Below are positions 847 to 42,919 of a DNA stretch of 44,597 bases, piece by piece. The notes beneath the pieces were generated by a model, which made no database searches, was not told the origin of the DNA, and saw only the letters and a list, made by a program, of their open reading frames with translations. Origin of the DNA: a virus; the IMG/VR virus record IMGVR_UViG_3300010396_000059, positions 1 to 44,597 of that record, one strand, 5' to 3'. A program made the position numbers and the translations under genes. Every line of letters starts with the position of its first letter. The stretch's first letter is position 1.

Positions 847-1046
847 GGCTCTGCGCATGTGGTTGTGGCGCTTCCTTGGAGGGCATGAGCCCCGACGCGA
901 GATACGCGACTGACGCCTGCCGTGCCCGTCACTGGAAGGAACGCACGGGCTATGTACATCCGCGTAGCGAGAACGCTCGGAACGGTGATTTCTGGGCACG
1001 GATAGCGACGGTCAAGCGCCGTCAGATGATGAGGAGGGTGGCATGA
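843..1046 (+). CDS. CxCGC zinc-binding mini-protein (67 aa)
   Basis: Starts at the ATG of an ATGA overlap with rusA; an in-frame ATG 15 bases upstream is less likely. It opens with MRLCACGCGASLEG, a CxCGC knuckle that probably binds zinc with the later Cys (TDACRARHW). The C-terminus is basic (KRRQMMRRVA), which suggests nucleic acid binding. The next gene begins with almost the same 14 residues, so the two share an N-terminal module, probably by tandem duplication. The exact role is unknown; an accessory DNA-binding protein is one possibility. Confidence 0.6.
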   Translation: MRLCACGCGASLEGMSPDARYATDACRARHWKERTGYVHPRSENARNGDFWARIATVKRRQMMRRVA

Positions 1047-1747
1047 GGGTTTGTGCATGTGGGTGTGGTGCTTCGCTGGAGGGACAGAAGCCGACGGTCC
1101 TCTATGCGTCGCGCTCATGCGCGGAGGGCAAGACCTCGAAGGCTCGCAGCCGAGGTGATTACACGCCGAGCGAGCGCGAGATGATCCCCATTCTTCGCAA
1201 CGACCCTTGTTCTTACTGCGGGGGTCCGGCAGGCACCATCGACCATATCGACCCGGTGCATTACGACGGTGGCCGCGTGTGGGAGAACTTGACGGCAGCC
1301 TGCCAGCCTTGCAATTCCTCTAAGCACACGCGCCCACTTCTAACCTTCCTGCTCGGTGCCGGGCAGCGTATTTCGGTGCCCTCGCGATCTGGGCAGATGC
1401 CTCCGGAGACGCCGTTGCCAGTCCCTGTGGTTGTCGCGCCCGAATTCGGCCCCGCCGGTGATCCGCGCGAGTGGACAATCTCACTGCGCGATGCGATTAG
1501 CGTGGCTTTCGAGATCTGCGAAGACCTGGGTCTGCCTATGTCCAGTGCAAAGGAGATCGTCGACGGGATGGTTAAGGCTGCGGAAGATGAGGATGAGGAG
1601 TGCCCCGATTCAGATGATCCCCTCGATGACCCACATACTGCGATAGGGCGGCTTTTTGCGGTGAGGCTTAGCCGCCACGTATCGGAGGAGGCGTGGGAAG
1701 CGGTCAGCGAACGAGTCGTGGACGAAATGCTTGCCGAGGCAGCGTGA
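1043..1747 (+). CDS. HNH endonuclease with N-terminal CxCGC module
   Basis: 234 aa. Residues 1-14 (MRVCACGCGASLEG) repeat the module of the preceding gene. Around residues 50-95 there is a standard HNH core: CSYCGG, then TIDHIDP with the catalytic His, ENLTAAC with the Asn, and CQPCNSSK closing the second zinc pair. The remaining 130 residues are acidic (DEDEECPDSDDPLDD) with no family I recognise. HNH proteins near packaging genes often assist terminase cleavage, but this one lies 2 kb upstream of the small terminase, so a homing or recombination role is also possible. ATGA overlap at the start. Confidence 0.8.
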   Translation: MRVCACGCGASLEGQKPTVLYASRSCAEGKTSKARSRGDYTPSEREMIPILRNDPCSYCGGPAGTIDHIDPVHYDGGRVWENLTAACQPCNSSKHTRPLLTFLLGAGQRISVPSRSGQMPPETPLPVPVVVAPEFGPAGDPREWTISLRDAISVAFEICEDLGLPMSSAKEIVDGMVKAAEDEDEECPDSDDPLDDPHTAIGRLFAVRLSRHVSEEAWEAVSERVVDEMLAEAA

Positions 1748-5282: not shown

Positions 5283-6135
5283 ACGGAGGATAGCTGAGGG
5301 GGTCCAGACGAACACACAACCCGACCCATTCCTTCTCGCCGCAGACATCCTCGACCCACCTCAACCCGACAGCCAATGGGTCTGCGACAGGCCGGACTGC
5401 GACGGGCAACCTCACGACAAATGGCTCCATAGGCATGCCAGAGCAGCCCAACGCTCACCCGACGGCGACTGGTTCGTATGGCTCATCATGGCCGGACGAG
5501 GCTGGGGCAAGACGAGGACCGGAGCCGAGTGGCTAGCCCACGAAGCACGCGCCCACCCCGGCTACCACTACGGGGTCGTAGCGCGCTCAACCCAGGACTG
5601 TCGAGAGACCTGCATCGAGGGCTTGTCCGGTCTACTCAAGGCGCTCGACTTGCGCATCGACAGTCCCGAGTACAACCGCGCCACAGGCGAGATACGACTC
5701 CCCAACAGTGCGATCATCCATGCCTACAGCGCAGAGAAGCCCGATCGCATTCGCGGCCCCAACCTATCCGGTGCCTGGTGCGACGAGCTCTGCACATGGC
5801 GGTATCCACAAACATGGACCGAGGGTCTGATCCCCGCACTGCGTATCGGTGAGCCCCGCGTAGTAGTCACAACCACACCACGCACCACAGCCCTCATCCG
5901 AGAACTAGCCAGCCGCGAAGACGGCTCCGTAGTCCTCACTCGCGGTTCGACGTTCGACAATGAAGCGAACCTCAGTCCCGAAGCGATTACCGAACTGCGC
6001 CGACGCTACGAGGGCACACGACTCGGGCGCCAAGAACTCCTAGGCGAGCTAATCGAGGACATCGAGGGCGCACTCTGGAACCGCTCAATGCTCGAACACC
6101 GGGCACGCTGGGCAAAGGGACACCCCGGATGCTAG
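5281..6135 (+). CDS. terL: Terminase large subunit, ATPase half
   Basis: Packaging motor ATPase. Walker A is AGRGWGKTRTG at about 5488-5520, Walker B is SGAWCDEL near 5770-5793, and the coupling motif TTTPRTT lies near 5870. Coding-like sequence continues upstream of Walker A to about 5281 (ending in DWFVWLI), as expected for the adenine-binding N-terminal part, but there is no ATG, GTG or TTG in that stretch; the first canonical start, 5488, is inside Walker A. ACG at 5308 after AGGGGG, or ATA at 5290, would have to serve. The frame ends at TAG right after GALWNRSMLEHRARWAKG, where a normal terminase continues into its nuclease. The nuclease follows in the -1 frame with a 7-base ATGCTAG overlap. 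Confidence 0.8.
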   Translation: MRRIAEGVQTNTQPDPFLLAADILDPPQPDSQWVCDRPDCDGQPHDKWLHRHARAAQRSPDGDWFVWLIMAGRGWGKTRTGAEWLAHEARAHPGYHYGVVARSTQDCRETCIEGLSGLLKALDLRIDSPEYNRATGEIRLPNSAIIHAYSAEKPDRIRGPNLSGAWCDELCTWRYPQTWTEGLIPALRIGEPRVVVTTTPRTTALIRELASREDGSVVLTRGSTFDNEANLSPEAITELRRRYEGTRLGRQELLGELIEDIEGALWNRSMLEHRARWAKGHPGC

Positions 6136-6698
6136 ACCCACTGGAGAAGAACGCGCTGACCCGCATCGTCGTCGCAGTAGACCCGGCGGTCACAGCCGGT
6201 GAAGACTCAGACGACACAGGCATCATCGTCGCCGGTCTCGGCAAGGACGGTGAGGGTTACATTCTTGATGACCTCACGTGCCACCTTTCCCCCGACGGGT
6301 GGGCAAAGCGCGCTGTCTACGCATACGAAAAGTGGACCGCCGACCGGATCGTCGCCGAGGCAAATAATGGCGGGGAGCTAGTCAGTACGGTCCTGAAGAC
6401 CGTCAATACGGCACTACCAGTCAAGCTTGTCCACGCTGCGCGAGGCAAGCTCACACGAGCTGAGCCTGTCGCCGCCCTTTACGAGCAGGGACGCATACAC
6501 CACGTGGGCGGGTTCCCTGAGCTAGAGGACGAGCTTTGCACATGGGTACCTGGAGAGTCCGGCTCGCCGGATCGGCTCGACGCACTCGTGTGGGCGATCA
6601 CGGAGTTGATGGTCGATTCAGGACACGCATCGATGCCAGTGTTCGGGACAGGCCAGTCGACCTGGGCGCCGATGCGACAGAAAGCAGGCATCTCCTAA
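6129..6698 (+). CDS. terL: Terminase large subunit, nuclease half
   Basis: 189 aa with the RNase H-like nuclease fold of large terminases, which cuts concatemeric DNA: VAVDPAVT with the first metal Asp, SDDTGIIVAG, then EANNGGELV with the second acidic residue and DRLDALVWA with the third. In most actinophages this is the C-terminal half of one protein. Here it starts at an ATG overlapping the ATPase stop (ATGCTAG) and is in the -1 frame. Either the two halves assemble as separate subunits, or a frameshift or sequence error splits one gene. All three catalytic acids are present, so the domain looks functional. Confidence 0.8.
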   Translation: MLDPLEKNALTRIVVAVDPAVTAGEDSDDTGIIVAGLGKDGEGYILDDLTCHLSPDGWAKRAVYAYEKWTADRIVAEANNGGELVSTVLKTVNTALPVKLVHAARGKLTRAEPVAALYEQGRIHHVGGFPELEDELCTWVPGESGSPDRLDALVWAITELMVDSGHASMPVFGTGQSTWAPMRQKAGIS

Positions 6699-20755: not shown

Positions 20756-21523
20756 GCGGCTGCGGTTGTCGGCCAACCGCCTGGGCTAAAGCTGAATACC
20801 CCCTTCCCTTCTGGGGTGAGAGTGTCCACGCAATACAGTTCTCCGTGTTCCGAGATGATATCGCGGTGTTCGCGTTGATAGGTTCATCGTAAACGCGCCG
20901 CCGTTCGATGGCCGTCATTGCGGACTGTGCGATTATTCCAGATGGTCCAGACACGGCATAAAAAAATGGGACTTTCGCTGCGGCGACGTTTTCACCTGCC
21001 ACGAGTTCTTCTGGTTCGTTTACTTCGACCCTGAATCCCACCTGTGGAGATATCCCCTCTTTAACGTCTTCGATGCCGAAGTCAAGTTGTCGGCCGCTTT
21101 GCCTGCTTTCGCCCCAAAGTGCTGCCCGGCAAGATGCAAACGGTTCGAGAGACACGGACATAGACCCGGATGGGTCGGAGAATGTCACCGTGACGGGCGC
21201 GATCCGACCGTGTGAGCACCAGACGCGATGGGAAATCCCGACGGTGAGGGAGGAAGGGGAGGGGCTGGTCTTTGTTCTAACCGTCACCCCCCCCCGGTGG
21301 TGATCACAGGTGGTTCGTGGCCCGAGTCCCATGGTCCACCAAACGGCTGGGGCTGATAGACGCATTGCACCTTCAGGGGATGAGCCCTCTCTACGTCAGC
21401 TATGTAGTGCGCTCGACAGTGTTCGTGCCTGGGTTGTTTGAGCACGTACTGGTTTGGCTTGGCCGCCGTCGTAGCCGGAAACGCGAGTGCCAGTAGTACG
21501 AACGCGGCGACGACCTTAAGCAT
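20752..21523 (-). pseudogene. Secreted accessory protein, two apparent frameshifts
   Basis: Starts with a signal peptide (MLKVVAAFVLLALAFPATTA) and the block QYVLKQPRHEHCRAHY, shared with the gene at 32557-33720. The frame stops after VITTGGG at a run of nine G (minus strand). Adding one G joins it to a long coding-like frame (APVTVTFSDPSGSMSVSLEP; SPQVGFRVEVNEPEELVAGE). A second one-base deletion near 20865-20885 joins that to SEHGELYCVDTLTPEGKGVF, ending at TAG 20752-20754. Both corrections together give 257 aa with one clean reading. It runs against the structural genes. It may be a decayed or phase-variable gene, or carry sequencing errors. Confidence 0.6.
21287..21295 (-). repeat. Homopolymer tract of nine C (nine G on the coding strand)
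   Basis: A nine-base mononucleotide run exactly where the secreted gene changes frame. With 9 G the product stops after about 79 aa; 7 or 10 G would restore the long frame. Such tracts are classic slippage sites and also classic sequencing-error sites. Confidence 0.7.
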
Positions 21524-32263: not shown

Positions 32264-32557
32264 TCAGGATTGCCGCTTCCTGCCGTAGATCACGACCCCA
32301 TCGACAGCTGCGCCGATGCCCCATAGCGCTGTCATTAGCAGCGCATAGGCACCAATCGCCACCATCACGAAAATCCAGATCAACAATGGCAATAGGAAGG
32401 ACACGAAGCCCAATACGAGGAACGCGAGACATCCGGTCCCAGTGCGCTCGCCAACCGAGCGCCCCTGGTTACGTTTGCTCCACCAGTCCGCGAACGAACC
32501 CATCTTTTTCCAGCCGCCGAGAGCTTGGTCACGGACTGCTTCGGTGAACTCGCTCAT
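32264..32557 (-). CDS. Two-segment membrane protein (97 aa)
   Basis: Starts in a TAATG overlap with the secreted protein gene, so the pair is co-translated. Residues 44-90 hold two adjacent membrane segments (CLAFLVLGFVSFLLPLLIWI and FVMVAIGAYALLMTALWGIG) with a basic C-terminus. The N-terminal 40 residues are soluble and basic. It could anchor or export the neighbour, or be a moron-type membrane factor. No named family. Confidence 0.6.
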   Translation of the reverse strand: MSEFTEAVRDQALGGWKKMGSFADWWSKRNQGRSVGERTGTGCLAFLVLGFVSFLLPLLIWIFVMVAIGAYALLMTALWGIGAAVDGVVIYGRKRQS

Positions 32558-33720
32558 TACCGTATTTCCGGAATGAAACTGATCGGTGCCTTCGCTTCGG
32601 CGACGGAATAGCCGGCCGCGTTATAGCCGGACATCGCGCTATAGTCGCTGCCTTCGAGCGACGCAATGCTCAGGTGCCCTTGCTGGACCTCGTCCCAAAT
32701 GCAGCCCGTGTTGTTGCAGCGACCACCTTGGGTCGTCGTGGGCAGCTTCTCAATTCCACTGAGCAGTCCGACTTCAGCGATGCGTTCCCCGTGTTCTTCG
32801 CAAACGCTTTCTTCGCACCATTCTGCCTTGGTGGTCGTGGCCCATACAGTGAACTCTGTATTACTGCCGCCGTTGCCGCAGCCATAGGAGTTCGCGGTCC
32901 AGCTACATGACGGCGCATTGATGGTGAGCCAGGGTACTCCGAGCGATGCCCCGGCTTCGTCGTTCAGCGTTCCGTGAACTTCGATATAGCCGAGTACCCA
33001 ACGCTTGCAGCCGATAGTTGAGCCGCCACTACCACCGTGTGCCCATTCTTCCCAAGAGCAGCCCGATTCCCCTTCTTCGCGTGTTGAATGCGCCAACGGC
33101 ACATAAGCGACGTTCAGCGTGATGTTCCCTTTGAGTGTTTCGATGTTCTCCACGCTCGTTTCGGTCGCGCTTGTCGCCCCCGAGCTGTAGATCGTCGTGA
33201 CCGTGTGTTCGCCGAGCTTTGAGTATGCGACGGGGCATTCTCCGCCCGTAGCGGAGCCGCCGACATTGATGGAGCAGGCTAGAAGCCCATCGTTGTAAAG
33301 GCTCAAGACGCCTTCTGGGAGGGGTGTAGATTCCGTTATCGCAGCAGTAGCGAGTGCAGCGGTTTCGACCGTGGCGCTCGCGCTGTAGGCGTAAGTGACC
33401 TTGAATGGGTCGGACGGGTCGCGCGTGAAGGATGGGTCCAAGTGGGCTTTCAGGTGGAGCGCGCGGGCGGGCGGAAGGGCTGCCAGCGGGGGCGTAGGCG
33501 CCACCTTGACGGACGGCTTCGGCGCCGCGTAGACGCACACGGTCTCCTTGACCTTCACGAGCCTGCCGTGCTCACGCTTCTTGACATGCTCGACCTTCCG
33601 CACGTAATGGGCCTTGCAGTGCTCTCGCTTTGGATGCTTGAGAACGTACTGCTTGGCTTGGGCGATCCCGCTCGAAGCTAGCGAGAGGGCTATTGCGATG
33701 AGGGCGATACGCTTGAGCAT
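32557..33720 (-). CDS. Secreted Ig-like protein of host type (387 aa)
   Basis: AAGGAGG ribosome binding site 8 bases before ATG. Signal peptide (MLKRIALIAIALSLASSGIA), then KQYVLKHPKREHCKAHYVRK and a basic segment KVEHVKKREHGRLVKVKETV, followed by beta-rich Ig-like regions (STPLPEGVLSLYNDGLLACS) and a Cys-rich C-terminal domain with several CxxxxC pairs. I recognise this build from secreted proteins of Thermoleophilia. It shares its N-terminal block with the broken gene at 20752-21523. It is encoded against the structural genes, so it is probably a moron or lysogenic conversion gene that alters the host surface. Confidence 0.7.
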   Translation of the reverse strand: MLKRIALIAIALSLASSGIAQAKQYVLKHPKREHCKAHYVRKVEHVKKREHGRLVKVKETVCVYAAPKPSVKVAPTPPLAALPPARALHLKAHLDPSFTRDPSDPFKVTYAYSASATVETAALATAAITESTPLPEGVLSLYNDGLLACSINVGGSATGGECPVAYSKLGEHTVTTIYSSGATSATETSVENIETLKGNITLNVAYVPLAHSTREEGESGCSWEEWAHGGSGGSTIGCKRWVLGYIEVHGTLNDEAGASLGVPWLTINAPSCSWTANSYGCGNGGSNTEFTVWATTTKAEWCEESVCEEHGERIAEVGLLSGIEKLPTTTQGGRCNNTGCIWDEVQQGHLSIASLEGSDYSAMSGYNAAGYSVAEAKAPISFIPEIR

Positions 33721-33809
33721 GTCAGAGCCTCCTTGGGGTTCTGGCCAGCCCCCGGCGATCCCTAGTCGCGCGGGGGCACCTTTCTGAATGTGCGAATAGT
33801 AGCATACTG

Positions 33810-34378
33810 TCAGCGATGCTTGGCCTTCTGGATATCGCTCGTTAGTTCTGCGATGAGTTGATTCAGGCGAGCGTGGGTGGGGTGCGGCACGGTTGCTGCG
33901 ACAGCCTGCCCAGCACCAGCACATTGAACGCTAGCGTGAATTTGGAGAGTTATCCCCGTTTCGTTACTAACGATAATGAACCAGCTTTGGTGTGTGGTTT
34001 CCATCTCGCTCGCAGCTATGCCTGCGATGCTGCCAAAGCCTCCCCCGCTGACGGCGTGGGAGCCGAATGGGCATACGGCTTCTGCGCCGGTCACTTTCCC
34101 GGGGGGCGCCCCAACTGTGGGACCCGTCACGGTTGTGAGGCCGCTTAGGTTGCTAGGCCCGGCGGGGCCAACAGGTCCTTGGGGCCCGACGCGCCAGTAG
34201 GTCCTGCGGGTCCAGTCACTCCGGCCCTGCCGTGGAGCTGCCGTAGGACGCTCGGCTTGATCTGTTTGCTGGATGTAATGACGTAACGACTGACCGCAAG
34301 GCCCGTCCCCGTCAGTGAGAAGAATACGGCGACGATGGCCACAGCCATCGAGGGTTTACGCAGGGCGCGTCTCAGCAT
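33810..34378 (-). pseudogene. Collagen-like surface protein, one-base deletion
   Basis: Starts at ATG 34376-34378 after AAGGGAGG. The N-terminal anchor (MLRRALRKPSMAVAIVAVFF) is followed by SRYVITSSKQIKPSVLRQLH and Gly-Pro repeats (TGPAGPTGASGP). The frame then ends at TAA after LAPPGLAT. Inserting one base in the GGGGCCC run at 34181-34187 gives GPVGPAGPSNLSGLTTVTGP and continues into AEAVCPFGSHAVSGGGFGSI and the end at 33810, 189 aa in all. Without the insertion two fragments remain (ending at 34145 and starting near 34130). The protein type is familiar from Solirubrobacterales. It may be decayed, phase-variable, or a sequencing error. Confidence 0.6.
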
Positions 34379-34442
34379 GGGGCCTCCCTTGGCCTTCGAT
34401 TTGGTGCCGCACCCTACCAAAGAGTCCGAATCAATAGAACGT

Positions 34443-34802
34443 TTAGGCATCATGGTCCGGCTGCTCTTGGGTTCTGGGGCCGCCTGGCATGACTACGGGC
34501 TGGGCGCCGGGGATACGCGTGTAGAGCGCCTTTACGGGGGTCAGTATGTAGAGACGGTCGGCGTCTCCCTTCAGCATGTAGTTGTAGTGCCCGTCAACCA
34601 TCTTGGTCCAGTTGATCGCCACGGTGACGATGCCGCAGCTACAGAGGTACTCGGTCTCGTCGCCCTCCACCTTGATCGTCATTGCCGGTAGTCCTATCTC
34701 TCGGTTGCATCCGGGGCAATCCGCGCTCAACCATGCCTCGCGAATACGTCCACCGTCCCCAGAATGGAGACCGACCTCTGCCATGAGTTCTTCAACCTTC
34801 AT
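34443..34802 (-). CDS. Zinc-ribbon hypothetical protein (119 aa)
   Basis: GGAGGGACAAAG leader before ATG. Two Cys pairs (CPGCNREIGLPAMTI and YLCSCGIVTVAIN) form a probable zinc ribbon; the C-terminal half is a beta/alpha domain (MVDGHYNYMLKGDADRLYIL) and the tail is Pro-rich. It is the first gene of the leftward accessory group that continues to 32264. Function unknown. Confidence 0.6.
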   Translation of the reverse strand: MKVEELMAEVGLHSGDGGRIREAWLSADCPGCNREIGLPAMTIKVEGDETEYLCSCGIVTVAINWTKMVDGHYNYMLKGDADRLYILTPVKALYTRIPGAQPVVMPGGPRTQEQPDHDA

Positions 34803-35241: not shown

Positions 35242-35330
35242 GCTGGCTTCGTCATGGACATATTTGCTTGCTGCTCGCGGGGAGCGGTGTGGTGGCGATC
35301 GCGCAATGGGTGGGTCTCTTCCATGTTTAG
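35238..35330 (+). CDS. 30-aa membrane peptide
   Basis: GTG start in a GTGA overlap, stop overlapping the next ATG (ATGTTTAG). The sequence MSWLRHGHICLLLAGSGVVA followed by IAQWVGLF is one hydrophobic segment. Tight coupling on both sides supports translation. It may be a small lysis peptide. Function unknown. Confidence 0.45.
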   Translation: MSWLRHGHICLLLAGSGVVAIAQWVGLFHV

Positions 35331-36111
35331 GCGGATCGGACGGGTGCTTGACCGGGTGGGCTGGCTCATCGCGATCGTTTTCTTGGGTGTCGGGTTCGTT
35401 GTTTTGCACGATCAGAGCGTCAAGCTGGGCAACGACTCGAAACGCATCGGCGAGCAGACTATGAGCCTCGAAGCGCTGTCTGCCCAGAATGGGACGTTGA
35501 TTGTGACGTTGGAAGCCGAGGTCGCACGGGAGCGCTCACGAGCGATCCAGGCCGCCGATGCGTACTGTCGATTGAAGCATTACGAGACATTGTCGGGTGG
35601 TGCGGTATTGCGGATCGCAGCAGGTTTTCATCTACTCTCCTCTCGCGCGCAGGCTCGCTGGAGGGTCGCACTTGAGCGGGTCGCACAGATCCCTGCCGCA
35701 TCCTCGTGTTCGGGCACACCAGTGGGTCTCAGGAGACCACCTAGCCGTCCGGAAGATCGGAGTCTCGTCTCGCAGGGGGAAGCGCTCGTAGCACCATCCG
35801 TCGGCGCTCCGATCATCCACCGGCCGCCCGCACATCACCCGCACGTCACCCCTCCGTCACGTCACACGACACCACAGCCTGCACCCCGGGCGCCCTCAAT
35901 TGCTCCTCCACCATTGCCGCCTGCTGCGCCTAGCCCTCCGAGTCCACCGCCGCATAGCCCACCGATCCCGCCTGCTCCTCCACCTGTTCCTGTTGCGCCT
36001 CCAGTCGAACCGCCTGCTCACAAGAAAGGTCCCCTCGGGTTGCCTTGCATTGAAGTGGCCCATATCGAAGTGGCGTGTCATTCATCTCGCGTAGCCCGGG
36101 GGCATCCGTGA
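35323..36111 (+). CDS. Spanin-like membrane-anchored Pro-rich protein (262 aa)
   Basis: ATG at 35323 overlaps the previous stop; an in-frame ATG upstream is inside that gene. Residues 12-32 are one membrane segment (LIAIVFLGVGFVVLHDQ), residues 35-95 a coiled coil (QTMSLEALSAQNGTLIVTLE), and residues 150-235 a long Pro/His-rich spacer (PPPLPPAAPSPPSPPPHSPP). This resembles an envelope-spanning protein such as a Pro-rich spanin or a cell wall-spanning factor. Stop overlaps the next gene as GTGA. Assignment is structural analogy only. Confidence 0.5.
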   Translation: MFRRIGRVLDRVGWLIAIVFLGVGFVVLHDQSVKLGNDSKRIGEQTMSLEALSAQNGTLIVTLEAEVARERSRAIQAADAYCRLKHYETLSGGAVLRIAAGFHLLSSRAQARWRVALERVAQIPAASSCSGTPVGLRRPPSRPEDRSLVSQGEALVAPSVGAPIIHRPPAHHPHVTPPSRHTTPQPAPRAPSIAPPPLPPAAPSPPSPPPHSPPIPPAPPPVPVAPPVEPPAHKKGPLGLPCIEVAHIEVACHSSRVARGHP

Positions 36112-36431: not shown

Positions 36432-37259
36432 ATGAAGTCTCGTTGTCTCGCGGCACTCGCCGTGCTGCTCGTGTTCGCTGGGTGTGGAGGAACGGTCACG
36501 CACACGGTCACTCAGCTCACGCCCGCACCACAGGTGACGTACATCCCACCGGAGAGCTCTGTGACGCCGGAAGGCGCGGTCACGGCTTCGCCTCCTGTCT
36601 CGATCTCACCGACGGTCAAGCACCAGTTGACGATCGACACGGCGGGCCTGCATCTCATCGAGCAGTTCGAGGGGTATCAGCGTTGTGCGTATTGGGATCC
36701 CTTTGGTCGTGTCTACACGGCTGGGTTCGGCCAGACGAAAGGCGTCTATCGAGGGTTCTGTTTCGCGGGCCGGGCTGCTGCCGAGGCGAACCTCAAGCGG
36801 TCGGTGCAGATCGAATACGAGTGGGCCGTCCATGCCATCGGCTACCCGTTCAACCAGCATGAGGTCGACGCGCTCGACAGCTTCAGTTACAACCTCGGCA
36901 GTGGAATATTTGTAGGCGCGCTCCGGTCCGATCTCGAGCGCGGCCAGGTCTACGCAGCGTCGCGGATCATGCTCGCCTACGATCACGCCGGGGGAGTCGT
37001 CCTCCCCGGGTTGAAGACCCGTCGTGAACTCGAGGTCCGGCTCCTCCTGTTGCCTGTCGCCAAACCGGCTAAGCGCAACCGGGCCGCTGAACACGCTCAC
37101 TTGAAACGGCTCGATCTCGAACGGGCCAAGATCCGCCGGCACCTGTTGAACGCGGGTTGCCGAGTCAAGCATCCACGGCCTGCATGTACACCGCTGCGTA
37201 AGCGCGGGGCGGCCGTCAACGAGGAGATTCGTCTACTCAAGTCGAGAGGAGTGAAGTAA
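36432..37259 (+). CDS. GH24 lysozyme (endolysin) with lipoprotein signal
   Basis: 275 aa, strong GGGAGG ribosome binding site. The N-terminus has a signal peptide ending in LVFAGC with the lipobox Cys at residue 18, then a Pro/Thr linker. Residues 70-190 are a T4-type lysozyme: IEQFEGYQRCAYWDPFGRVY with catalytic Glu80, then TAGFGQTKGVY. SFSYNLGSGIFVGALRSDLE is the conserved helical core. A basic Arg/Lys-rich C-terminus with Cys pairs may bind wall. Export by its own signal would make it independent of a pore-forming holin, with lipid anchoring holding it at the membrane. Confidence 0.8.
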   Translation: MKSRCLAALAVLLVFAGCGGTVTHTVTQLTPAPQVTYIPPESSVTPEGAVTASPPVSISPTVKHQLTIDTAGLHLIEQFEGYQRCAYWDPFGRVYTAGFGQTKGVYRGFCFAGRAAAEANLKRSVQIEYEWAVHAIGYPFNQHEVDALDSFSYNLGSGIFVGALRSDLERGQVYAASRIMLAYDHAGGVVLPGLKTRRELEVRLLLLPVAKPAKRNRAAEHAHLKRLDLERAKIRRHLLNAGCRVKHPRPACTPLRKRGAAVNEEIRLLKSRGVK

Positions 37260-37447
37260 TGCGCTGTCCTCATTGTGGTCGCTGCTCTGAGTGTGGAGCA
37301 CGCGAAGACGTTCGACCCGTTCCCGTTTGGCCTCCTCCGGGAGAACCGCTTCGCACGATCCCGATTCGCTTTGACGAGCCGTATTGGCCGGGCTATGGAG
37401 AAACAGCTACTTCGCTGCCCAATCGGCCTTTCATCGTCACCTGCTGA
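37259..37447 (+). CDS. Small zinc-ribbon protein (62 aa)
   Basis: Overlaps the lysozyme stop by one base (TAATG). The N-terminus is MRCPHCGRCSECGARE, a compact three-pair Cys motif, followed by a Pro-rich part. It is likely coupled to the lysozyme. Function unknown. Confidence 0.5.
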   Translation: MRCPHCGRCSECGAREDVRPVPVWPPPGEPLRTIPIRFDEPYWPGYGETATSLPNRPFIVTC

Positions 37448-37478
37448 ATCCCTAACCCGATAACTCAAAGGAGACACC

Positions 37479-37850
37479 ATGAAACTTCAGCTCCCGTCGT
37501 GGGCGACCACTGTGGGTGGTCTCGTCACGGGCATCCTCGCCGTGCTCAACCAGACCACGTTCACCTTCGCTGCCCAGTGGCAGGTGTACATCACGATCGC
37601 GTTGTTCTTCTTGTCCGGTATCGGGATCAGTCCGCTGGTGGGTCCTGCGTTCAGGGCTGCTTTGCACATCACTACCAAGGTGAGCCTGGTCATCTCCTCT
37701 GCTCTGGGAGCGTTGGCGTTGGCTGCTACGACCCTGTCGATCTCCAGTGATGCTAAGGGCGCGATCCTTGGTGTCCTGACGTTCCTGGCGGCTCTGGGGT
37801 TTGCTCCTACGGCTCCTGTGGTGGTTGGTCAGATTCGGGGTGGACGATGA
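37479..37850 (+). CDS. Holin candidate (123 aa, three membrane segments)
   Basis: AAAGGAGA ribosome binding site. Three hydrophobic stretches (TVGGLVTGILAVLN; WQVYITIALFFLSGIGIS; KVSLVISSALGALALAATTL and a final LGVLTFLAALGFAPTAPVVV) with a short basic C-terminus (GQIRGGR), the arrangement of actinophage holins beside a lysin. The stop overlaps the protease gene as ATGA. It would form the membrane lesion in lysis timing. Confidence 0.6.
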   Translation: MKLQLPSWATTVGGLVTGILAVLNQTTFTFAAQWQVYITIALFFLSGIGISPLVGPAFRAALHITTKVSLVISSALGALALAATTLSISSDAKGAILGVLTFLAALGFAPTAPVVVGQIRGGR

Positions 37851-38686
37851 CCCGCGCCGCTACGAGCTACGGCCGCTACCAGGTCGCAGAGCCCCCCTCG
37901 GCTCTCCTGAGCGTGCACCAGCACGACGGGACGAGCACTCTCAAAGAGGTCGATCACGAGCCGAAGGTGGCCGTTCTCGACCAGGAGGACCTGTTCGCTC
38001 AGGGCATCCGTGTCTCGACGTTCATTCCGGGCGCGAAGGATGTGGATGCTCTCGGGTCGTGTACGGCGAACGCGACGACTTCAGCGCTGTCGAACATGCT
38101 GAGCGAGGCCGCATTCGCGGCATGGGTTGGCGAGCAGGTGCTCGTCGGCGGTGGCACGACCTACTCCGACACGGTCGCGGCGGAGAAGGCAGCGATCCGC
38201 TTCTACCACGGATGCACCGACCAGACCGGGAGCACGGCCGAAGAGTGGCCGCCCACCGATTGCGGCTCTTCAGGTCCATACATCGTCAGCGAGCTGGAAC
38301 GCCTCAAACTCGTCAAAGGGGCAAAGATCGCATCGGGCGCCCAGAACATCGTCTCCCTGTTGCAGACCAACGGGATCTTGCAGGGCACGCCTTGGTTCTA
38401 CGCGGCAGAGGAACCGGATGTTCACGGGTTCGTGGACGGGGACGGGTCTGTTAGCGCTATCGAAGCCCTCATCAACTCGGGAGTCGCGGGCGGTCATGAG
38501 ACCTACCAGTCGGCTATCGAGAAGCTGGTGGTTCTCCCGAGCGGCCACGTGGACCCGTTCAACACGGTCATCCGGGTCAGGAACTCGTGGGGGCCGAGCT
38601 GGGGCGATCACGGGTCGTGCCGGTTTCACCTCTCGACGCTCGTAGCGATCCAGAGCGCCTGCGACTTCAGGCAGCTGGTCGCGTGA
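37847..38686 (+). CDS. Papain-like (C1) cysteine peptidase (279 aa)
   Basis: ATGA overlap with the holin candidate. The catalytic triad is visible: GSCTANATTSALSNMLSE with Cys72, GGHETYQ with His217 and VRNSWGPSWGDHG with Asn246; the NSWG-x-x-WG block is diagnostic. There is no signal peptide and no obvious inhibitory propeptide, and the first 40 residues are extended. It is followed by a phospholipase D-like gene in GTGA overlap. The target could be a host or phage protein in the cytoplasm, or a wall peptide if released at lysis. Confidence 0.8.
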   Translation: MTRAATSYGRYQVAEPPSALLSVHQHDGTSTLKEVDHEPKVAVLDQEDLFAQGIRVSTFIPGAKDVDALGSCTANATTSALSNMLSEAAFAAWVGEQVLVGGGTTYSDTVAAEKAAIRFYHGCTDQTGSTAEEWPPTDCGSSGPYIVSELERLKLVKGAKIASGAQNIVSLLQTNGILQGTPWFYAAEEPDVHGFVDGDGSVSAIEALINSGVAGGHETYQSAIEKLVVLPSGHVDPFNTVIRVRNSWGPSWGDHGSCRFHLSTLVAIQSACDFRQLVA

Positions 38687-39240
38687 CACTCCGTGAAGCC
38701 TTCGGTCGGCTTGACACGTTTCGTGCTCAGCCGGCCGCTCACGGCTACCCCGAAAACCTCCGGCACCTGTTCGCTCCTATCGACCAGGTGCATGAAGCAC
38801 TCGTGTCGCTGTGTCAGGCATCCAGCCTGTCTATCGCGGCGGCAATATACGGGTGGGACGACGACGAGATCGATGCCCTGTTCCGCTCGAAGCTCGAAGA
38901 AGAACACGTTCCGGTCGTCCTCGCGCTCGATAAGAGCCAAGCGGGGGGTGTCCATGAGCGCAAGATCTTGGCTGAGTGGAAGCCCGACCAGATCGGTAAC
39001 GCGATCGTCATCGGTCACAGCTCGAAGGGAGCGATCAGTCACGACAAGATGATCGTCCTTGATGGTCAGGTCACGGTCTGTGGTTCGACCAACCTCTCCG
39101 AATCCGGAGAGAGCAAGCAGAACAATGAGGCGGTCATCGTCTGGGATCCAGTGTTCGCTGCTGAGGCCCGGGCACGCATCGACTGCATCCATAACGAGAT
39201 GCACGGTCAAATGGTCGCGAAAGGGGAACTGACCTCATGA
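38683..39240 (+). CDS. Phospholipase D-like (single HKD) protein (185 aa)
   Basis: GTG start in a GTGA overlap with the peptidase. One HKD motif, SHDKMIVLDGQVTVCGSTNL, with His120, Lys122 and Asp127, followed by the GSTNLS strand typical of Nuc/PLDc_2 proteins; these act as homodimers so that two motifs form one active site. Substrates in the family are DNA or phospholipid. N-terminal helix and DKSQAGGVHERKI complete the fold. No signal peptide. The stop overlaps the next membrane gene as ATGA, indicating coordinated expression. Confidence 0.8.
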   Translation: MTLREAFGRLDTFRAQPAAHGYPENLRHLFAPIDQVHEALVSLCQASSLSIAAAIYGWDDDEIDALFRSKLEEEHVPVVLALDKSQAGGVHERKILAEWKPDQIGNAIVIGHSSKGAISHDKMIVLDGQVTVCGSTNLSESGESKQNNEAVIVWDPVFAAEARARIDCIHNEMHGQMVAKGELTS

Positions 39241-39374
39241 GCCTCAACTCGGAGGGCGGCAAGCGTTCTGCGCAACTCCTCGTCTTGCTCCTCATTGTCG
39301 TCTTGATCGGAGCTCTGGTCTATGGCGTCTATGAGTTCTTGCACTGGGCTCGTATCCTGGGTCAGCTCGACTAG
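39237..39374 (+). CDS. 45-aa single-span membrane protein
   Basis: ATG in an ATGA overlap with the PLD-like gene. Short polar N-terminus then one clear membrane segment (QLLVLLLIVVLIGALVYGVY) and a short tail ending ILGQLD. It is likely co-expressed with the peptidase and PLD-like protein and could localise or act with them. Function unknown. Confidence 0.6.
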   Translation: MSLNSEGGKRSAQLLVLLLIVVLIGALVYGVYEFLHWARILGQLD

Positions 39375-42808: not shown

Positions 42809-42847
42809 AGGCAGTATATCGGTCGGCATTGGAGATGTCTAGAGAGC

Positions 42848-42919
42848 TGGGGGGCTGGGATTCGAACCCAGATCTCATGGTTGGAAAGACCAGCGTCCTG
42901 CCTTTTGGACGACCCCCCA
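42848..42919 (-). tRNA. tRNA with UUC anticodon (Glu by anticodon, Gln-like acceptor)
   Basis: On the minus strand: acceptor TGGGGGG with CCCCCCA (U1-A72), D arm GTCC/GGAC with an 8-base loop AAAAGGCA, anticodon stem CTGGT/ACCAT (4 pairs, C27-U43 mismatch), 7-base loop CTTTCCA giving anticodon UUC, variable GAGAT, T arm CTGGG-TTCGAAT-CCCAG. Discriminator is G and no CCA is encoded. Position 37 is C, unusual since it is normally a purine. By anticodon it reads GAA (Glu), but U1-A72 with G73 is what bacterial tRNA-Gln carries. No promoter boxes could be assigned. Confidence 0.75.

What the first reader, a model, noticed from the sequence alone, without database searches (positions are those of the whole stretch)
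37847..39374. Papain-like protease, PLD-like protein and membrane peptide in one coupled unit
Three overlapping genes (GTGA then ATGA) encode a complete C1 peptidase (Cys72, His217, Asn246), an HKD protein (H120-x-K-x4-D) and a 45-aa membrane protein. Neither enzyme has a signal peptide, so both should act in the cytoplasm or be released at lysis. A protease that could activate a nuclease or lipase effector is a logic seen in defense systems, but I know of no named system with this set. It may instead be a lysis aid.
Basis: inference. Interest (0 to 1): 0.75.

Follow-up and report, generated by a model that had tools for sequence, protein, structure and literature searches.

The report
Mobile nuclease behind phage lysis protease
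The three overlapping phage genes are real, but comparison with hundreds of related phage loci shows the protease to be a long-standing neighbour of the phage's lysis genes, while the 'phospholipase-like' protein is a nuclease gene that hops between positions in phage genomes and trades places with a different nuclease, so the pair is probably not a two-part weapon.

Summary
Observation confirmed: a C1 (papain-type) peptidase, an HKD protein and a 45-aa membrane protein overlap (GTGA, ATGA), and the upstream 3-TM holin-like gene also overlaps the peptidase (ATGA, missed). The unit is the 3' end of a lysis cassette. The peptidase is xylellain-like with an invariant Q46/C72/H217 set and recurs in lysis cassettes of Gordonia, Arthrobacter and Streptomyces phages. 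The HKD protein is Nuc/NucT-type, i.e. a nuclease by fold and motif. The two do not evolve together: their pairwise identities are uncorrelated; 41/68 HKD loci lack any papain-fold gene; 39/57 peptidase loci lack a nuclease; relatives of the same cassette acquired distant HKD genes independently (AU p 3e-67) or an HNH gene (L001). The HKD family (73 uncultured viral loci, one copy per contig) occurs behind the peptidase, at tail/lysis borders, between capsid genes and inside a split terminase gene. In homologous slots it is exchanged with one HNH family, once on one contig with flanks 72-82% identical. That is the behaviour of a free-standing mobile, homing-endonuclease-like gene; no known homing family uses HKD. 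Site-specific homing itself is not shown. The protease-activates-effector (defence) reading is not supported.

The parts
36432..37259 (+). endolysin, phage lysozyme domain, N-terminus looks like a lipoprotein/secretion signal (LVFAGC)
   Evidence: PF00959 E 4e-19; PHROG endolysin families; N-terminus read from the sequence
37259..37447 (+). 62-aa CxxC protein, also present upstream of the holin-like gene in L001
   Evidence: blastp E 6e-6 to the L001 protein
37479..37850 (+). 123-aa three-TM holin-like protein, stop overlaps the peptidase start
   Evidence: hydropathy count; overlap ATGA 37847-37850
37847..38686 (+). C1 (papain/xylellain-type) cysteine peptidase; Q46 (37982-37984), C72 (38060-38062), H217 (38495-38497), N246 (38582-38584); 20-residue insert between Q46 and C72
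38683..38686 (+). GTGA stop/start overlap, peptidase to HKD gene
38683..39240 (+). single-HKD nuclease of the Nuc/NucT type; H120 (39040-39042), K122 (39046-39048), D127 (39061-39063)
   Evidence: PF13091 E 5e-9; PDB profile hits Nuc E 5e-14 and NucT E 4e-11; Foldseek top hits Nuc and NucT
39237..39240 (+). ATGA stop/start overlap, HKD gene to TM peptide
39237..39374 (+). 45-aa single-TM peptide, no homologue found
   Evidence: no family above cut-off
5488..6698 (+). large terminase split into two genes (5488-6135 and 6129-6698) at the ATPase/nuclease border; in L091 the same junction holds an HKD gene 65% identical to this one

Best explanation
Two functionally separate genes sit side by side. 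(1) The peptidase is a cytoplasmic C1A enzyme of the xylellain type that is a long-standing accessory member of actinophage lysis cassettes; it is made with the holin and most likely reaches wall or envelope substrates once the holin opens the membrane (inferred). (2) The HKD protein is a single-domain, presumably dimeric nuclease (Nuc/NucT fold; activity inferred) belonging to a mobile, one-copy-per-phage gene family of uncultured, largely actinobacterial phages. It behaves like a free-standing homing-endonuclease-type gene: it occupies several unrelated slots of the late operon, can sit inside a split gene, arrives repeatedly and independently in the same slot behind the peptidase, and is exchanged there and elsewhere for an unrelated HNH nuclease. 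Its 4-bp overlap with the peptidase is how a newcomer gets translated, not a sign of partnership. Shown: fold, conserved residues, slots, exchange, independent arrival. Inferred: nuclease activity, DNA cutting as the engine of spread, lysis role of the peptidase.
For: HKD = nuclease: profile hits Nuc E 5e-14, NucT E 4e-11; Foldseek Nuc TM 0.69/0.83. Exchange with HNH in homologous slots: L038/L033 on one contig, flanks 72-82% identical, no similarity between the two nucleases; L100/L217, L093/L236, L120/L172, L102/L172; L001 has HNH behind its 72% identical peptidase. Many slots: inside split TerL (L091), TerL-portal (L141), portal-head protease (L093), MCP-connector (L120), lysis 28 and head/packaging 7 of 69 loci. 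Independence from the peptidase: rho 0.17, p 0.21, e.g. L026/L154 C1 25% but HKD 74%; L026 and window HKD not one clade, AU p 3e-67; 41/68 HKD loci without papain-fold genes, 39/57 C1 loci without nuclease. Window + L072 + L091 HKD form a 96* clade although one sits in TerL and two behind C1. Peptidase in lysis cassettes. Literature: HEG class swaps at one locus (PMC10448857), mobE coupled to nrdA and split genes (PMC2988022).
Against: No extra DNA-binding domain is visible in the 185 aa; Nuc and NucT are not site-specific (PMC5714352), so homing specificity has no visible basis. One copy per contig and near-exclusion with the HNH family (1/49 contigs) would also fit a real phage function served by either enzyme. 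Catalytic residues hardly ever decay. Immediate neighbourhood of papain-fold genes and HKD genes recurs in about seven lineages with three papain-fold families, which leaves some room for a functional link. The TerL insertion rests on one contig. The HNH loci were collected by searching for that HNH, so the number of exchanges is not an unbiased rate.
Confidence: 0.6

Rival explanations
1. One dedicated late nuclease per phage: HKD and HNH proteins do the same job for the phage, such as shredding host DNA at the end of infection or at lysis, and replace each other by non-orthologous displacement; gene position does not matter as long as it is late.
For: One copy per contig in 49/49 HKD contigs apart from one short fragment match; HNH of the exchange family in only 1/49 of these contigs but 16/37 peptidase contigs; strong purifying selection and invariant catalytic residues; 28 of 35 placed HKD loci lie near an endolysin.
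Against: Many peptidase-bearing phages have neither nuclease; an intracellular nuclease would endanger unpackaged phage DNA; insertion inside terminase and repeated independent arrival in one slot are typical of mobile genes.
Confidence: 0.25
2. Protease-activated effector unit: the peptidase cleaves or releases the HKD enzyme, perhaps as defence against other phages.
For: Translational coupling; full trio with 4-bp overlaps also in L026/L027; papain-fold and HKD genes directly adjacent in about seven lineages.
Against: Uncorrelated divergence, separate occurrence, replacement of HKD by HNH behind the same peptidase, no defence neighbours, only weak DrmC hits, no prodomain-like extension on the HKD model (high confidence throughout).
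Confidence: 0.05
3. The HKD enzyme is a membrane phospholipase that helps lysis.
For: PLD superfamily; lies beside holin-like and TM genes; profile also hits MitoPLD/Zucchini.
Against: Best matches are nucleases; exchanged for an HNH nuclease in the same slots.
Confidence: 0.04
4. The HKD protein is a DNA-packaging helper like the HNH protein gp74 of HK97.
For: Some copies lie next to terminase or portal (L091, L093, L141); gp74 promotes cos cleavage (PMC9410871).
Against: Most copies lie far from terminase; the window already has a canonical HNH gene upstream of terminase (1208-1333); canonical HNH genes are as common in HKD contigs (14/46) as in the comparison set (18/47).
Confidence: 0.06

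Closest known systems
Nuc (pKM101, PDB 1BYR) and NucT (Helicobacter pylori, PDB 6EHI) nucleases
   Same: Single HKD/GSxN domain of similar size, same fold, best sequence-profile and structure match
   Different: 14-19% identity; phage-encoded in late operons, no secretion signal seen, substrate unknown
Xylellain (PDB 3OIS) and Lpg2622 (PDB 6A0N), short bacterial C1A peptidases
   Same: Papain fold, Cys-His-Asn plus Gln; xylellain-type C1A genes are reported in Siphoviridae and Myoviridae (PMC10380794)
   Different: 20-residue insert between oxyanion Gln and catalytic Cys in 54 of 60 members; no signal or long proregion; moderate TM-scores (0.44-0.48)
'Cysteine protease' genes of Gordonia and other actinophages (e.g. 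Morgana gp30, Mareelih gp109; phrog_16701)
   Same: Homologous, next to endolysin and holin genes
   Different: 24-35% identity; no HKD gene beside them
Free-standing phage homing endonucleases (seg/mob genes of T4; interchangeable HEGs of ICP1-like phages)
   Same: Slot hopping, exchange between nuclease classes at one slot, gene splitting, translational overlap (PMC2988022, PMC10448857)
   Different: HKD fold is not among the six families listed in PMC6083498; no DNA-recognition module seen; one copy per phage
DISARM DrmC
   Same: HKD domain, weak profile hits (E 2.5e-5 and 4e-5)
   Different: Far below the family cut-off (23 vs 133 bits); no DISARM neighbours

Membership tests
C1A papain-type peptidases (xylellain group) | Catalytic Cys-His-Asn and oxyanion Gln | tested here: met
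   Q46, C72, H217 in 60/60 and N246 in 58/60 relatives
C1A papain-type peptidases (xylellain group) | Papain fold and profile similarity | tested here: met
   hmmsearch to 3OIS E 2e-8; Foldseek Lpg2622 E 1.7e-7, prob 1.0, modest TM 0.44; single-sequence Pfam score below cut-off
C1A papain-type peptidases (xylellain group) | Proteolytic activity | not testable with these tools
   needs purified protein
PLD-superfamily nucleases (Nuc/NucT) | HxK(x)4D(x)6GSxN in a single small domain | tested here: met
   H120, K122, D127, G134, S135, N137; H, K, G, S, N invariant in 64/64
PLD-superfamily nucleases (Nuc/NucT) | Nuc fold | tested here: met
   top Foldseek hits 1BYR and 6EHI
PLD-superfamily nucleases (Nuc/NucT) | Homodimer and nuclease activity | not testable with these tools
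   no complex prediction or assay; exchange with HNH genes is indirect support
Free-standing homing endonucleases | Mobile gene in varied intergenic slots, exchange with other nuclease classes | tested here: met
[quoted passage not shown] PMC6083498) | tested here: not met
   HKD fold; so it is not filed as a member, only as working like one
Free-standing homing endonucleases | Clean empty allele at the insertion site | tested here: inconclusive
   TerL junction is split but empty in window and L261, filled in L091; peptidase slot lacks a nuclease in L008, L024, L025; sequences too diverged for base-level comparison
Free-standing homing endonucleases | Site-specific cleavage of the empty allele | not testable with these tools
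   needs biochemistry or co-infection
Phage lysis cassette | Next to endolysin and holin genes in one operon | tested here: met
   window 36432-37850; homologous cassettes in Gordonia phages
HK97 gp74-like packaging nucleases | HNH fold, next to terminase/cos | tested here: not met
   HKD fold; most copies far from terminase; a separate HNH gene exists at 1208-1333
DISARM or other PADLOC defence systems | Companion genes and curated score | tested here: not met
   only DrmC-like HKD similarity, 23 bits vs cut-off 133

The most novel reading that the evidence does not exclude
HKD (phospholipase-D-fold) nucleases form a new catalytic class of free-standing homing endonucleases in actinophages, able to split genes such as the large terminase and to displace HNH homing genes from their slots.
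Probability: 0.25. Interest if true: 0.85.

Novelty: new variant of a known kind. Interest (0 to 1): 0.6.

Why it matters
HKD nucleases are known as salvage, transformation and piRNA-type enzymes and as one DISARM part, not as mobile phage genes. A one-per-phage HKD family that trades places with an HNH family, essentially absent from 50,697 cultured phage records, points either to a new homing-endonuclease class or to an unrecognised late nuclease function that two unrelated enzymes can serve. Both are directly testable with small proteins. It is also a caution: overlapping start and stop codons in phages do not prove that two products work together.

Tried and rejected
Close-relative scan with the single HKD sequence found nothing; only the alignment reached the family. 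HKD in phage records: one weak hit to a faecal contig and none with another member; HNH partner none. Rfam for an intron around the HKD gene in L091 and other loci: only tRNAs, so the split terminase is not explained by a known intron family. HKD in a bacterial class (198 genomes related to the L072 host): only L072's genome has the full-length family, other hits are short partial matches in larger proteins, so it is not a common chromosomal defence gene. I first read the unit as a lysis-cassette enzyme pair; the head and terminase slots and the independent arrivals made me drop that for the HKD gene. Packaging-helper reading tested by counting canonical HNH genes: no difference. Literature search for nucleases that thin phage lysates found nothing usable.

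Full report
CHECK. The three ORFs, their residues and their overlaps are exactly as described. One coupling was missed: the peptidase ATG overlaps the stop of a 3-TM holin-like gene (ATGA 37847-37850). Upstream lie a lysozyme endolysin and a 62-aa CxxC protein; the window is a siphophage late region (terminase 5.5 kb, tape measure 21.6-27.9 kb, lysis 35-39 kb). The genes are under purifying selection (HKD dN/dS 0.13; peptidase 0.21-0.36).

PEPTIDASE. Profile and fold both say short bacterial C1A peptidase (xylellain, Lpg2622), a type already reported in tailed phages (PMC10380794). Q46, C72, D138 and H217 are invariant in 60 relatives and N246 in 58; 54 of the 60 carry about 20 extra residues between the oxyanion Gln and the catalytic Cys. 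Homologues occur in Gordonia, Streptomyces, Mycobacterium and Arthrobacter phages and in Streptomyces plasmid records with phage genes. They mostly sit among lysin, holin and tail-end genes, with exceptions in tRNA arrays and in a right arm. BetterKatz gp29, a cysteine-protease-like protein, was called an endolysin by its authors (PMC4982276).

HKD PROTEIN. The family profile hits Nuc (E 5e-14) and NucT (E 4e-11) first; the model (pLDDT 95.6) matches Nuc best. NucT is an endonuclease that prefers single strands, and Nuc-type enzymes act as dimers (PMC5714352). Activity here is inferred, not shown.

DO THE TWO BELONG TOGETHER? The full trio recurs in L026/L027 with 4-bp overlaps; peptidase and HKD gene are adjacent in L072 and one gene apart in L029. 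But of 57 unique peptidase loci 39 have neither nuclease within the fetched flanks, 14 have the HNH family and 4 the HKD family; of 68 HKD loci 41 have no papain-fold gene of three types. Identities of the two proteins across loci are uncorrelated (rho 0.17): L026 and L154 share 74% in HKD but 25% in the peptidase. In the HKD tree window, L072 and L091 group together; L026, whose cassette is otherwise like the window's (endolysin 49%, peptidase 55% identical), is far off and cannot be joined to window and L072 (AU p 3e-67). L001, with the closest viral peptidase (72%), has an HNH gene there instead. So the slot behind the peptidase was filled at least three times. Against full independence: papain-fold genes (C1, a second C1-like group, a YiiX-like group; the last two names are mine from the sequences, Pfam gave no hit) lie directly beside HKD genes in about seven lineages.

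EXCHANGE AND MOBILITY. HKD and HNH genes replace each other in slots with homologous genes on both sides. The clearest case lies on one contig: L033 (HNH) and L038 (HKD), flanking genes 72-82% identical. HKD genes also lie between portal and head protease (L093; HNH in L236), between major capsid protein and connector (L120; HNH in L172), between terminase and portal (L141), and between the two halves of the large terminase in L091, where no coding residues appear lost. Window and L261 have the terminase split at the same border with nothing in between; 79 of the 86 terminase loci examined are intact. The window's nearest viral HKD relative is this terminase-inserted one (65%, against 50-56% for the terminase pieces themselves). 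Each HKD contig has one copy and only 1 of 49 also has the HNH family, whereas canonical PF01844 HNH genes coexist freely and the window has one at 1208-1333.

READING. Slot hopping, class exchange, gene splitting and start/stop overlap are the marks of free-standing homing endonucleases (PMC2988022, PMC10448857). The listed homing families do not include HKD (PMC6083498), so I do not file it as a member: it works like one, specificity untested. Single copy and near-exclusion with the HNH family keep alive the rival that both serve one late phage function. The protease-effector model is the least supported.

LIMITS. Records are mostly metagenomic fragments, hosts are largely inferred, gene calls are my own script's, the HNH loci were collected by searching for that HNH, and the terminase insertion rests on one contig.

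Noticed in passing
window 5488-6698; L261; L091 1986-4184: Large terminase split into two genes at the ATPase/nuclease domain border, empty in window and L261, with an HKD gene and two small zinc-ribbon-like ORFs inside in L091.
   Followed up: partly
window 1043-1747: ORF with a canonical HNH domain (PF01844 match 1208-1333) upstream of the terminase, possibly a gp74-like packaging protein.
   Followed up: no
window 32557-33924 (-) and 21284-21523 (-): Minus-strand ORFs inside the plus-strand late region: a protein with a signal-like N-terminus and a short peptide with a similar motif (YVLKHPKREHCKAHYV / YVLKQPRHEHCRAHYI), possibly lysogeny-expressed cargo.
   Followed up: no
window 34145-34453 (-): Short protein with a TM-like N-terminus and collagen-like GxP repeats on the minus strand between tail and lysis genes.
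   Followed up: no
window 35254-36111: 285-aa ORF with TM and proline-rich tail, weak Rz-like spanin match (E 0.016), odd for a phage of a presumed Gram-positive host.
   Followed up: no
contig IMGVR_UViG_3300044977_000094 (L033, L038): Two lysis cassettes of the same type about 100 kb apart on one 175-kb record, one with HNH and one with HKD; probably two prophages on one host contig.
   Followed up: partly
L033, L038, L100, L217, L002: DUF1003/iron-permease-like and VIT1-like small membrane proteins recur beside the nuclease slot in lysis regions.
   Followed up: no
window 42846-42919 (-): tRNA-Glu(ttc) near the right end beside HTH regulator genes; could be phage tRNA cargo or an attachment site.
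   Followed up: no
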